Below are positions 37,020 to 47,992 of a stretch of DNA of 64,000 nt, piece by piece (the stretch's first letter is position 1; every line of letters begins with the position of its first letter). Location: NCBI RefSeq assembly GCF_000246855.1, contig NC_016609.1:2418001-2482000 (forward strand), given 5' to 3'. Under the pieces are notes generated by a model. That model was not told the DNA's origin, ran no database searches, and saw only the letters and a program-made list of their open reading frames with translations. The translations under genes and the position numbers were made by a program. The DNA is from Niastella koreensis GR20-10. GTDB taxonomy: Bacteria; Bacteroidota; Bacteroidia; Chitinophagales; Chitinophagaceae.

Positions 37020-37053
37020 ACAATCTTCAATTTTGGCCGCGAAGGTAAGGAAA

Positions 37054-37181
37054 AGGCATCGAGGCACAAAGGCAACAAGGCATAAAGGCATAGAGGCAAC
37101 AAGGCATAAAGGCATAGAGGCACAAAGGCAACAAGGTATCGAGGCAACGAGGAACAAAGGCAACCAGGAACAAGGTAACAA
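37054..37181. repeat. Octamer array of 15 units (AGGCAACA type)
   Basis: Fifteen consecutive 8-bp units starting AGG at 37054, 37062, 37070 and so on to 37166, with no indel; the next unit slips by one base. Variation is nearly confined to unit positions 4-8 (AGGCATCG, AGGCACAA, AGGCAACA, AGGCATAA, AGGCATAG and others). The complementary-sense array at 37221-37332 forms the second arm. Together they fill most of the 407-base ndk-nrnA gap. Confidence 0.88.
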
Positions 37182-37220
37182 GAAACGCTGGTTTGGGCAT
37201 ATTTCCTGGTTTTTCCCCTT

Positions 37221-44944: not shown

Positions 44945-45060
44945 TAGTTCTCTGTTTTCAGTTCTCAGTTCTCTGTTCCCCGAACATCGAAGATAAGGAC
45001 TGTTTGTAATTTATCACTCATTTTGAATTAAAGAACTGTGAACAGTAAACTATAAACTGA
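44945..45060. repeat. Inverted pair of heptamer arrays (AGTTCTC / GAACTGT type), overlapping the recF end
   Basis: Five units at 44945-44979 (AGTTCTC, TGTTTTC, AGTTCTC, AGTTCTC, TGTTCCC) and four at 45033-45060 (GAACTGT, GAACAGT, AAACTAT, AAACTGA). The last unit and a half overlap the recF stop and final codons. Confidence 0.7.
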
Positions 45061-46132
45061 TTAGCTGATATTGCATGCCCAAACTATCAAAATGGTGCTC
45101 AATACGTCCCGGGTGTGTATCTGTAATAAAAACCTGGCCGGCGTTTTTCATACAAACGTGTTCGAGCAGGTTGTGCATGCGGCCGGCATCGAGTTTTTCA
45201 AACACATCGTCGAGCAGGAGCAGGGGCGGGAATTGTTTGGCCTGTTTCAGGGTATCGAACTCGGCTAATTTCATGGCAAACAACAGGCTTTTGCGCTGGC
45301 CCTGCGAGGCAAGCGATTTAAAAGGCTGGTTGTTGAGCTGGGTATTGATGTCGTCGCGGTGAATACCCCCGCTGGTGCGTTGAACTATGCAATCCTTCTG
45401 GCGCAGCCGGTGTAATAATTGCGGAAACGTACAGTCATGCAACTGGCTTTCGTAGGTGAGGGCCAGCGGTTCCGACTGTCCGGCTATCTGGGTATAGAAT
45501 TTCGACACCAGGGGCAGAAATTCCTGCAGAAACTCCTTTCTTTTTTGATAAATGAAGGCGCCGTACCGGGTCAGTTGTTCGTCGTACACATCCAGCAGGC
45601 TGTAATCGCTCATTCTTTTTTCGGCCATCGATTTCAAAAAGCCATTGCGCTGCAGCAATACCTTATTATAATCCATCAGCTGTTGCAGGTAGTGGGCGTC
45701 GAGCTGGCAAAGCAGGGCATCGAGCATGCGGCGGCGTTCTTCGCTGCCGCCGGTAATGATCTGCACATCGTCCGGCGCAATGATTACGCAGGGAAGCCTG
45801 CCAATATGGGTGGCCAGTTTTTCGTACGGTTCGTCGTTCACGGAAAATTCCTTGCGGCCGGTTTCGCGCAAAACACAAACCACTTTCAGCGGGTCGCCCT
45901 GCAGGGTGAAATGGCCTTCAATGCGAAACCCGGCGGAGCCATGTAAGGTGTTCTGGCTATCGCTGCGGGTGAAATAGCTTTTGGTAAAACAGCAGTAATA
46001 AATAGCGTCCAGCAGGTTGGTTTTGCCCACGCCGTTCGATCCGCAAATGCCAACTATCCGTTCGGTGAACGGGAATTGCCGGTGTTGATAGTTTTTAAAT
46101 TGGGTGAGGGATATGTTGTTGAGCGATAGCAT
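45050..46132 (-). CDS. recF: DNA replication/repair protein RecF
   Basis: About 360 residues. The Walker A motif GSNGVGKTN is at 31-39; the signature and Walker B regions are in LASQGQRKSLLFAMKLAEF and LLLLDDVFEKLDAGR. RecF binds gapped DNA and helps load RecA at stalled forks. The ATG at 46132 is used since an in-frame ATG four codons upstream falls within a TATCTTGC box on the minus strand (46141-46148) that resembles a -7 element. The last codons lie within a heptamer repeat. Confidence 0.94.
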   Translation of the reverse strand: MLSLNNISLTQFKNYQHRQFPFTERIVGICGSNGVGKTNLLDAIYYCCFTKSYFTRSDSQNTLHGSAGFRIEGHFTLQGDPLKVVCVLRETGRKEFSVNDEPYEKLATHIGRLPCVIIAPDDVQIITGGSEERRRMLDALLCQLDAHYLQQLMDYNKVLLQRNGFLKSMAEKRMSDYSLLDVYDEQLTRYGAFIYQKRKEFLQEFLPLVSKFYTQIAGQSEPLALTYESQLHDCTFPQLLHRLRQKDCIVQRTSGGIHRDDINTQLNNQPFKSLASQGQRKSLLFAMKLAEFDTLKQAKQFPPLLLLDDVFEKLDAGRMHNLLEHVCMKNAGQVFITDTHPGRIEHHFDSLGMQYQLISL

Positions 46133-46140
46133 TTCGGGAT

Positions 46141-46148
46141 GCAAGATA
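46141..46148 (-). promoter_or_regulatory. Candidate -7 box of recF
   Basis: Minus strand TATCTTGC, close to TAnnTTTG, 9 bases before the chosen recF ATG. The nearest TTTG on that strand lies in the first unit of the 21-bp array, about 15 bases upstream. Confidence 0.35.
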
Positions 46149-46159
46149 GCTAATAGCTA

Positions 46160-46450
46160 CTTTCAAATGGGAGGTATCATGTATCTGTTTTGAGGTATTG
46201 TTTGTCATTATTGAAGTATGACTATTAAAATTAAGGGGCTTACTTTTCAAATTGCAGGTGCCACTTTTCAATTTGCGGGCGTCTTTATTCAAATTGGAGG
46301 GCCATGTTGAGAATTAGAGGGGCATTGTTCATATTATAGGTGTGCCATTATCCAATTTGGAGGCATCGTTGTACAATTTAGAGGTCCCATTACTCAATTT
46401 ACAGGCATCATTATTCAAATTGCCTACCCAATATTGAATTTTGCCACCAG
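46160..46450. repeat. Array of about thirteen 21-bp degenerate units
   Basis: Units start at 46160, 46181, 46202, 46223, 46244, 46265, 46286, 46307, 46328, 46349, 46370, 46391 and 46412, all exactly 21 bases long; a further weaker unit starts at 46433. The best-conserved parts are TCAAATT at unit positions 4-10, GAGG at 12-15 and CAT at 19-21; other positions vary freely. Units 5-7 and 10-13 are clearest. There is no spacer and no indel. I see no open frame worth calling on either strand. Confidence 0.9.
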
Positions 46451-46720
46451 TTCCTGGCAGGAATTGCAAAATCCCGGAAGGATTTAAGGATTCCTAATGG
46501 GAAAAGGGAATTGCTGTTGGGTTTTGTCAATTCCCGGAAGGAAAAGTGAATTCCTTCCGGGTTTTCTCTTTTCCCGGCGGGAAAAGGAAATTCCTTCCGG
46601 CTTTTTTGATTTCCCACCAGGAAAAGCTATTCCCTTCCTGGATTTTAAGATCCCCATCGGGATTTGTCATTTCCTGGAGGGAAACGAATATTCCTTCCGG
46701 CTTTTCTCTTTTCCTGGAAA
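46451..46720. repeat. Array of about thirteen 20-bp degenerate units
   Basis: From 46451 the period becomes exactly 20 bases: units at 46451, 46471, 46491 and so on to 46691, with a final partial unit at 46711. Two kinds tend to alternate, one with a near-palindrome such as TTCCCGGCGGGAA followed by AAGG-type bases, the other reading TTCCTTCCGGCTTTT. Every unit starts TTCC, TCCC or a one-base variant, apart from the fourth (TTGC). Confidence 0.9.
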
Positions 46721-46726
46721 ATAACC

Positions 46727-46768
46727 CTGAACCCGGAACGCTGAACTTGAAACTTTGAACTAATAACT
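46727..46768. repeat. Heptamer array (CTGAACT type)
   Basis: Six 7-bp units in register, CTGAACC, CGGAACG, CTGAACT, TGAAACT, TTGAACT, AATAACT, immediately after the 20-bp array. The rest of the gap to pdhA is A/T-rich with no further structure apart from the -7 box at 46905 and a small TCCCGAT/ATCGGGA dyad at about 46931-46954. Confidence 0.75.
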
Positions 46769-46904
46769 GAAAACCTGCCAGTTTTACCGAAATTATGTCT
46801 CAAATACAGTCAGAAGATAAGTTTTTCACCCAATCAACTGGCTATCAAACCATCTATTAGGGCTAAAAATGTTAATCCACATTCCATAATTCCCTTTCTT
46901 ACCC

Positions 46905-46912
46905 TATCTTTG
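46905..46912 (+). promoter_or_regulatory. -7 box of the pdhA transcript
   Basis: TATCTTTG followed by C is an exact TAnnTTTG match. It lies 85 bases before the chosen start, and overlaps the first possible in-frame start (46910), which argues against that longer form. Confidence 0.6.
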
Positions 46913-46996
46913 CCCCCGCCTTTGCCAGCCAGTCCCGATCCCGATCGTAATCGGGAGGAAGGCTTCAGCAGGGTTAAAACCTCAAATTTTTATAAA

Positions 46997-47992
46997 GTGG
47001 CTTCGAAATTCTCCAAAGAAACGTATTTGTATTGGTACGAGTTAATGCTCCTGATCCGTCAATTTGAACTGGCAGCCGAAGAAAAATATAAAATGGAAGG
47101 TAAAATCCGCGGCTTTTTCCACGCCTATGTAGGGCAGGAAGCTATTGCTGCTGGTGTAATGACCGCTACCCGCCAGGAAGATCCTTTTGTAACTGCTTAC
47201 CGCGACCACGGTCTGGCTTTGGCAAAAGGCATGAGCCCTGAAGGTTGTATGGCTGAGTTGTATGGTAAATCAACCGGTGTGGCCAAAGGTAAGGGTGGTA
47301 GTATGCACTTCTTTGGTAAAAAAGAATACTTCTTTGGGGGTCACGGTATCGTAGGTGCACAAATTGGCACCGGCGCCGGTTTGGCCTTCGCCGAAAAATA
47401 TAAAGGAACTGATAACGTATCTGTAACCTTCTTTGGCGATGGTGCTGCCCGTCAGGGTATTTTGCACGAAACTTTCAATATGGCTATGACCTGGAAGTTA
47501 CCAGCCGTTTTCATTTGCGAAAACAACAACTACGCTATGGGTACCTCTGTTACACGTACCAGTAACGTACACGATATCTTTAAACTGGCCGATGCGTATG
47601 AAATGCCTGCTGATTCAGTAGACGGCATGAGCGCTGAAGCTGTGCACGAAGCCATGTCACGCGCGGTTAAAAGAGCCCGTGAAGGCGGTGGACCAACATT
47701 ACTGGAAATTAAAACGTATCGTTATAAAGGTCACTCCATTTCCGACCCACAGAAATACCGTACCAAGGAAGAGGTGGAAGAGTACAAACAACGTGATCCT
47801 ATTCAACTGGTGCTGAACACCATCACCAAGAATAAATACGCTACAAAAGACGAGATTGCTGCAATCGACAAACGGGTTAATGACAGAGTAGCGGCTGCTG
47901 TGAAATTCGCAGAAGAGTCGCCCATCCCAACTGAGGATGAAGTGTTGAAAGACATTGTGATGACTCCGGATTATCCGTTCATTGTCGATTAA
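46997..47992 (+). CDS. pdhA: Pyruvate dehydrogenase E1 component, alpha subunit
   Basis: Decarboxylates pyruvate with thiamine diphosphate, as alpha2beta2 with the beta subunit, which is not in this window. About 331 residues from the GTG at 46997 (ASKFSKETYLYWYELMLLIRQFE). Cofactor motifs: GGHGIVGAQIGTGAG, then the GDG...NN motif (FFGDGAARQGILHE to CENNNYAMGT), and YRYKGHSISDPQKYR with the phosphorylation-loop Ser. The frame extends to 46910, but that part overlaps the promoter and translates as Pro/Arg-rich low complexity, so it is excluded. Confidence 0.94.
   Translation: MASKFSKETYLYWYELMLLIRQFELAAEEKYKMEGKIRGFFHAYVGQEAIAAGVMTATRQEDPFVTAYRDHGLALAKGMSPEGCMAELYGKSTGVAKGKGGSMHFFGKKEYFFGGHGIVGAQIGTGAGLAFAEKYKGTDNVSVTFFGDGAARQGILHETFNMAMTWKLPAVFICENNNYAMGTSVTRTSNVHDIFKLADAYEMPADSVDGMSAEAVHEAMSRAVKRAREGGGPTLLEIKTYRYKGHSISDPQKYRTKEEVEEYKQRDPIQLVLNTITKNKYATKDEIAAIDKRVNDRVAAAVKFAEESPIPTEDEVLKDIVMTPDYPFIVD

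What the first reader, a model, noticed from the sequence alone, without database searches (positions are those of the whole stretch)
46160..46450. Thirteen 21-bp units in exact register upstream of recF
Units begin every 21 bases from 46160 to 46412 with no indel, although up to half the positions vary. Conserved are TCAAATT at unit positions 4-10 and GAGG at 12-15. 21 bp is two helical turns, so the conserved core would lie on one DNA face. On the minus strand each core reads CCTCnAATTTGA, presenting a TTTG, the Bacteroidota -33 motif, toward recF. A binding array for a protein or an architectural element is possible; slippage alone would leave indels.
Basis: partly seen in the sequence, partly recalled or inferred. 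Interest (0 to 1): 0.78.

Follow-up and report, generated by a model that had tools for sequence, protein, structure and literature searches.

The report
Helically phased DNA arrays between genes
A bacterium carries, between its genes, families of roughly 200-300 base arrays whose loosely similar units repeat almost exactly every 20 or 21 bases (two turns of the DNA helix), and in the best-kept families DNA shape rather than exact letters seems to be preserved, possibly for a protein that bends or wraps the DNA.

Summary
The 21-bp period at 46160-46432 is real (lag-21 identity 0.54 versus 0.27; 0 of 1000 shuffles), but two of 13 units are off register by 1-2 bp, so "no indel" is only nearly true. 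The array is not a one-off: its family (R1) has matches at five loci of this genome (length as Niastella koreensis GR20-10). At four of five it adjoins a second array, R2 (20-bp units; window 46453-46712). R2 has at least 8 loci here and was measured in five congeners, mostly beside the same genes; family R3 has 21-bp units at 8 loci. Spacing is nearly exact: R2 96/97 here, 246/248 in congeners; R3 65/65. Units of one array resemble each other barely more than units at other loci, against local slippage. In fixed R2 and R3 columns TpA is avoided while AA and TT both occur, and R3's central step is pyrimidine-purine in 73/73: a constraint on base-pair steps more than letters. Best reading: phased DNA-bending/binding arrays for an unknown factor. 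No protein, transcript or function was shown.

The parts
46160..46432 (+). R1 array: thirteen 21-bp units, core TTCAAATT/TTCAATTT + GAGG; units at 46307 and 46328 displaced by 1-2 bp
   Evidence: model matches also at L201, L205, L204, L207
46421..46472 (+). junction between the two arrays; closely similar letters at the same place in L205, less so in L201
   Evidence: read by eye
46453..46712 (.). R2 array: thirteen 20-bp units, CC-N5-GG core with two A/T tracts, near-palindromic, units often alternating (40-bp period)
46723..46778 (+). eight heptamers of the form AACnnnn, of the common 7-bp class of this genome
   Evidence: read by eye; 7-bp class counted
45050..46144 (-). recF-like gene (Pfam SMC_N, RecF/RecN/SMC); first possible start 15 bp from the R1 array
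   Evidence: matches in 56 of 59 genomes
46910..47992 (+). dehydrogenase E1 component gene (pdhA-like; the true start may lie downstream of 46910)

Best explanation
The 21-bp array is one member of a class of intergenic DNA elements in this genus: arrays of about 7-15 sites placed almost exactly two helical turns apart (20 or 21 bp), at several loci as a composite of a 21-bp array beside a 20-bp array. Shown: the arrays, their spacing, their recurrence at unlinked loci and in corresponding gaps of congeners, and the step-type rule in R2 and R3. Inferred: a trans-acting DNA-bending or DNA-wrapping protein reads each unit mainly by shape (A/T tracts without TpA beside a GC core, flexible pyrimidine-purine step at the R3 dyad); phasing puts the units on one face so that the bends add up to a curved or wrapped segment. 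Selection keeps spacing and step types while other letters drift. For R1 itself this rests on its company with R2 and on its spacing, not on a step rule of its own.
For: (1) Spacing, with 16-24 (or 17-25) bp allowed: R2 20 bp in 96 of 97 here (8 arrays) and 246 of 248 in 21 arrays of five congeners; R3 21 bp in 65 of 65 here, 48 of 54 in G009. With no spacing assumed, in 864 kb, pairs of R2 unit matches 14-30 bp apart are at 20 in 40 of 42 cases, R3 pairs at 21 in 25 of 25; R1 only 10 of 63 at 21. (2) Units within a locus are hardly more alike than units at other loci: R2 0.544 v 0.525, R3 0.636 v 0.621, R1 0.477 v 0.455, background 0.26-0.27. (3) R2 arrays found by model search fall beside the same genes in different species, both flanks matching: TrhO gap in 4 species, L203 gap in 4, L215 gap in 3, recF gap in 2; one flank matching: malic-enzyme gap (G000 with three others), L214 and L229 sets of 3. 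(4) TpA in R2 tract columns is 21 of 580 A/T steps (0.036) against 0.243 in other columns of the same arrays and 0.208 in non-periodic gaps. Permuting columns within each locus: own R2 11 v 32.6 and 10 v 38.9, R3 10 v 17.9 and 27 v 42.2 (0 of 2000 each); 21 congener R2 arrays 14 v 62.0 and 21 v 80.6, five G009 R3 arrays 8 v 24.8 and 6 v 15.0 (0 of 1000 each). (5) R3 central step is YR in 73 of 73 units here, 61 of 62 in G009. (6) AA/TT phasing: all 8 R3 arrays at the 100th percentile of 127 control pieces at 10.5 bp; R2 81st-100th at 10.0 bp. (7) Unit number is narrow: R2 11-15 in the 29 arrays chained, R3 7-10 here. (8) R2 model matches are 88, 33, 27, 17, 15, 8 in six genomes and 0-1 in four, as if dependent on a trans factor.
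Against: No binding protein, footprint or transcript is known. For R1 the step rule is weak: TpA 17 v 22.9 (37 of 2000), 24 v 30.2 within loci (51 of 2000); its AA/TT phasing is only the 90th percentile at recF and 50th-98th at the other four loci at 10.5 bp by the fairer control (one search flattered it by comparing array maxima with single windows). Its column pattern alone fits uniform decay. Some other arrays tested likewise fit uniform decay (L039, L066, L006, L008, L004 42-bp), others do not (recF 20-bp, L035, L036, L052). TrhO R2 phasing is ordinary (81st, 76th, 50th percentile). G000 v G008 TrhO array: 41 substitutions and no indel in a 200-column block chosen after a 20-bp gap, flank 73 and 5 in 239 columns; per-column divergence does not follow conservation in independent arrays (pooled r -0.25, p 0.15). 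Arrays are dispensable at some loci: the TrhO gap is about 26-103 bp in G009, G004, G001 and G003 with the same neighbour. R2 loci were found with a two-unit model of fixed spacing made from this genome, and chaining favours the period, so spacing and presence/absence counts lean that way; one search is the less biased check. In R3 the strongest column associations lie in columns 17-19 of the variable part and are unexplained.
Confidence: 0.48

Rival explanations
1. A mutational generator: the arrays are made and kept tidy by a DNA-copying or cutting process with a two-turn step (REP/BIME-like transposase action, template switching at quasi-palindromes, or in-phase tandem duplication), without function for the host.
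For: Recent in-phase copies exist: 84-bp repeats 0.97 identical in G005 (L142), 42-bp repeats 0.84-0.90 in L118, L131, L147. Adjacent R2 units show slight inverted similarity here (0.444 v 0.377, p 0.0035; other species p 0.06), and single perfect hairpins are seen. Array-free alleles exist. G000 and G008 TrhO arrays differ by a 20-bp gap.
Against: Within-locus similarity hardly exceeds between-locus similarity, so units are not recent local copies. Column-restricted step rules are not expected from copying. No common ends seen by eye at 16 arrays; the two Y1 transposase genes found here do not carry these arrays beside them.
Confidence: 0.22
2. Ordinary minisatellites: local slippage followed by decay by substitution.
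For: The genus is rich in degenerate 7/8-bp arrays (33 of 55 periodic gaps in the own and congener samples). The recF array alone is compatible with uniform decay, with identity falling slightly with distance (0.54, 0.52, 0.49).
Against: Same consensus at unlinked loci; periods of 9 or more, multiples of 7 and 8 set aside, are 11, 20, 21, 41 or 42 in 18 of 19 gaps (set chosen after seeing the data); few register shifts at about 50% divergence; recurrence beside the same genes.
Confidence: 0.13
3. A transcribed structured RNA: a chain of hairpins formed by neighbouring units.
For: R2 arrays fold better than dinucleotide shuffles (recF20 z -8.8), and against 25 unit-order permutations each z is negative in 6 of 8 own arrays, below -3 in three (L202 -4.2, L206 -3.6, TrhO -3.3).
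Against: recF20 and L204 are not better than unit-order permutations (+0.9, +0.9); R1 is not structured (recF z -1.0, unit order -0.8; L201 +2.4 and +1.2). In R2 the column pairs above the null maximum are neighbours or lie within one tract, which does not fit pairing. No Rfam match in the window.
Confidence: 0.06
4. An array of promoter-like sites (TTTG) acting on recF.
For: Position next to the recF start and the minus-strand AATTTGA-like cores.
Against: The family stands at varied distances from genes elsewhere and at L207 points at a gene's 3' end; the core is not found in congener recF gaps. 5' ends were not available.
Confidence: 0.05

Closest known systems
REP/BIME elements with RAYT transposases (PMC2817692: abstract and passages seen)
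   Same: dispersed, intergenic, palindromic units, regularly spaced and alternating in some arrays
   Different: no enrichment of the GT(A/G)G head, near-exact 20/21-bp period with 7-15 units, arrays not beside the Y1 transposase genes of this genome
Intergenic heptamer arrays such as TAACTGA (PMC4679880: abstract and passages seen)
   Same: intergenic tandem arrays, also reported in five Bacteroidetes; this genome also has 7-bp arrays
   Different: those are direct repeats of one heptamer; here period 20/21, degenerate units with conserved core and two-turn spacing
Helically phased A-tracts / curvature-related sequence periodicity (PMC3940949: passages seen; PMC3431218 and PMC4132750: search listing only)
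   Same: AA/TT phased near 10-10.5 bp (R3, most R2), a proposed link to DNA bending and nucleoid compaction
   Different: there a diffuse genome-wide signal; here discrete arrays with GC cores, narrow unit number and families shared among loci
Iteron, partition-centromere and ribbon-helix-helix operator arrays (recalled; one search looked for such papers and none was read)
   Same: tandem sites of 7, 8, 11 or about 20 bp bound cooperatively (recalled)
   Different: those (recalled) are few and lie at a replicon or operon; here many chromosomal copies in all gene orientations, no known binder

Membership tests
REP/BIME | GT(A/G)G head next to the palindrome | tested here: not met
   GTRG in arrays, both strands: R1 3, R2 17, R3 2, against 10.6, 26.4, 16.0 in letter shuffles
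REP/BIME | cognate rayt gene flanked by the same units | tested here: not met
   Y1_Tnp at 5623007 and 7754495; best in-register pair within 600 bp R1 18.6 and 8.5, R2 1.8 and 1.2, R3 -2.9 and -8.2, against 30-54 in arrays
Minisatellite/VNTR | units of one locus derive from local copying | tested here: not met
   within-locus v between-locus identity nearly equal in R1, R2, R3; recent copies do occur in other gaps
Heptamer repeats (TAACTGA type) | direct repeats of one 7-bp unit | tested here: not met
Helically phased A-tract DNA | A/T tracts avoiding TpA, phased near 10-10.5 bp: R2 and R3 | tested here: met
   TpA. Phasing: R3 100th percentile at 10.5 bp in 8 of 8; R2 94th or above at 10.0 bp in 7 of 8, TrhO 81st
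   TpA 24 v 30.2 (51 of 2000), phasing 90th percentile at recF; no marked step pattern per column pair
Helically phased A-tract DNA | measured curvature | not testable with these tools
   only an AA/TT phasing proxy was computed
Known structured RNA | match to a curated family | tested here: not met
   no Rfam match at gathering score in the window
Protein-coding heptad repeat | open frame through the units | tested here: not met
   2-12 stops in each of six frames of the R1 array, 1-3 in each of the R2 array

The most novel reading that the evidence does not exclude
A shape-coded DNA element class: arrays of 7-15 two-turn units whose code is the base-pair step (AA=TT, YR) more than the letters, each family read by its own fast-changing bending or wrapping protein, so that families appear and vanish genome-wide while period and position persist; in effect sequence-programmed, nucleosome-like wrapping sites in a bacterium.
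Probability: 0.3. Interest if true: 0.92.

Novelty: categorically new. Interest (0 to 1): 0.77.

Why it matters
If the reading holds, it is a class of bacterial chromosomal element whose conserved quantity is helical phase and step geometry while its letters drift, which ordinary alignment and motif tools miss. It would give a natural, replicated system (29 R2 arrays in six species were measured) for asking how a bacterium places bends or wraps at fixed sites.

Tried and rejected
Local slippage was tested by within- versus between-locus identity and rejected as the main cause. Coding heptads: rejected. REP membership: rejected. Ends of a mobile element: 130-bp flanks of 8 R2 and 8 R3 arrays were printed and read by eye; no common ends seen, apart from a stretch shared downstream by L202 and TrhO. 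Core-versus-variable divergence between G000 and G008: not significant against independent arrays. A TG/CA preference at the R3 dyad (64 of 73 here) was not repeated in G009 (32 of 62), so only the YR rule is claimed. A first phasing control put the recF R1 array at the 98th percentile; the fairer one at the 90th, and the weaker figure is used. Terminus avoidance was considered; GC skew of the sample changes sign near 2.6 and 7.9 Mb, which does not fit it. Corresponding gaps with mixed results (own genome included): XdhC 21-class in 6 of 7 gaps examined (L113 and L119 were cut short by the ORF rule, L119 wrongly), MoeB 3 of 8, MsbA 5 of 10, cupin 1 of 4, TrhO 20-class in 4 of 8 (two more cut short). 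R1 rows: one search placed L204 on the wrong strand (3 units); one search corrects it (15 units) and extends into flanks, where 51 of 66 spacings are 21. Outside the genus: a family-wide R2 search of 117 genomes found four other-genus genomes with one match each, E 0.004-0.009. R3 also has one weak single match here at 863582, and the two G009 loci L226 and L227 hold only 2-3 units. The list of R2 matches was cut by the tool and only the 150 best candidates per genome were scored, so locus counts are lower bounds. Literature: eight searches listed no description of such arrays; the library holds open-licence papers only.

Full report
What was checked first. The window is bases 2418001-2482000 of a single 9,033,684-base contig. 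That length is the one given for Niastella koreensis GR20-10 in PMC3751351 (passages seen), and I use that name as likely. Its period is far beyond chance. The register is nearly but not wholly free of shifts: 11 of 13 units fit in place, two are displaced by 1-2 bp and register is regained. All six frames contain stops, so it is not a coding repeat.

Surroundings. A second array of thirteen 20-bp units follows (46453-46712) and then eight heptamers. In 864 kb of this genome, 24 of 194 gaps of at least 150 bp have a significant period, against 0 of 194 shuffled gaps. In 400 kb of congeners it is 31 of 130; in 400 kb of other genera of the family 4 of 71, with 7- and 11-bp periods only. Apart from the abundant 7- and 8-bp class and its multiples, 18 of 19 periodic gaps have a period of 11, 20, 21, 41 or 42 bp (the set was chosen after seeing the data). 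These look like one, two and four helical turns.

Families. They were searched in 10 genomes of the genus (lower bounds, see Tried and rejected). In the own genome R2 arrays lie at eight or more places, R3 arrays at eight, R1 matches at five. R1 stands next to R2 at four of its five loci (recF, L201, L204, L205), three times in the order R1 then R2 and once R2 then R1. Neighbouring genes occur in every orientation. By eye no common ends surround the arrays.

Spacing and origin of units. With other spacings allowed at a small cost, R2 spacings are 20 in 96 of 97 cases here and 246 of 248 in 21 arrays from five congeners; R3 spacings are 21 in 65 of 65 here and 48 of 54 in G009. Because models and chaining favour the period, a test without spacing was made: among unit matches 14-30 bp apart in 864 kb, R2 gives 40 of 42 at 20 and R3 25 of 25 at 21; R1, a weaker model, gives 10 of 63 at 21, other spacings 1-8. 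Units of one array are hardly closer to each other than to units at unlinked loci. Local tandem copying therefore did not make the present units, or did so long ago.

Corresponding gaps in congeners. R2 arrays found by model search fall beside the same genes in different species. Both flanks match for the TrhO gap (4 species), the L203 gap (4), the L215 gap (3) and the recF gap (2). One flank matches for the malic-enzyme gap (G000 with G002, G003 and G005) and for the L214 and L229 sets (3 each). L216 and L217 had no such partner in what I fetched. Of eight R3 gaps here, four share flanking sequence with a G009 R3 locus, two on both sides (XdhC, L213) and two on one (L210, L212). That these gaps show the 20-bp class is partly by construction; that many also hold a 21-bp array (L201, L234, L220, L204, L205, L233, L214 as 42 bp; TrhO of G005 and G002; recF of G000 and G003) is not. 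At the recF gap the 21/42-bp class is significant in 5 of 8 congeners, with different letters. Against this, G009 and G004, nearest by recF identity, and G005 lack it; the TrhO gap is array-free in G009, G004, G001 and G003 with the same neighbour; and the MoeB, MsbA and cupin gaps are mixed.

What is constrained. In R2 tract columns TpA makes up 21 of 580 A/T steps, against 0.243 in other columns of the same arrays and 0.208 in non-periodic gaps. It stays far below expectation when columns are permuted within each locus, in R2 and R3, here and in congeners; taken species by species, one of the two tracts is weak or not significant in G001 (49 of 1000) and in G008 (112 of 1000). AAAA, TTTT, AATT and ATTT occur side by side. 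In R3 the central step is pyrimidine-purine in 73 of 73 units here and 61 of 62 in G009. AA/TT is phased near half the period in R3 and most R2 arrays. AA and TT are one base-pair step read on two strands, so the conserved quantity looks like step geometry. RNA pairing does not explain it: in R2 the column pairs above the null maximum are neighbours or lie within one tract. The avoidance is confined to certain columns, which does not fit a general avoidance of UpA in RNA. For R1 these signs are weak.

Interpretation. The best-supported mechanism is a set of DNA-bending or wrapping sites in helical phase, read by shape by a trans-acting factor that differs between families. Spacing, column-restricted step rules, recurrence beside the same genes, narrow unit number and uneven presence of a family among genomes are observed; factor, bending and function are inferred. 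A mutational generator is the main rival and is not excluded.

Novelty. Resemblances to REP/BIME, heptamer arrays and phased A-tracts were tested feature by feature, and only the last is met, by R2 and R3. Eight literature searches listed no such description, in an open-licence library only; an earlier description elsewhere is possible.

Noticed in passing
L036:6945-7449 (own genome about 2.357 Mb): About 24 consecutive units keep one 21-bp register, by eye, while the motif changes two or three times along the array.
   Followed up: partly
window 37052-37182: Octamer array with an AGGCA part conserved and other bases variable; column pattern of 14 units not explained by uniform decay (z 5.7).
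   Followed up: partly
L007, recF gap of G006: 28 heptamers with GGCAA nearly invariant and two variable positions; very far from uniform decay (z 14.2).
   Followed up: partly
L043, L048, L065, L070 (own genome): Arrays with an 11-bp period; those in L043 and L065 look alike by eye (GGTCTGGGAAT-like).
   Followed up: no
own genome, R2 and R3 loci: None of the 16 listed R2/R3 loci lies between 3.18 and 6.07 Mb (the R2 list was cut); not tested for significance.
   Followed up: no
window 46533-46561 and R2 arrays of L201, L202, L205: Single perfect or near-perfect hairpins inside otherwise degenerate R2 arrays, by eye, as template switching would leave.
   Followed up: partly
L142 (G005 TrhO gap) and L126 (G005 MoeB gap): Recent tandem copies: 84-bp period 0.97 identical and 64-bp period identical in the best window.
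   Followed up: no
XdhC gap (L052) and MoeB gap (L031): By eye, an 8-bp AGTTAACN/AGTTGACN array directly precedes the R3 21-bp array at both gaps.
   Followed up: no
R3 units, columns 17-19: Strong association among these three columns of the otherwise variable part (mutual information 0.49-0.67, null maximum 0.34), unexplained.
   Followed up: no
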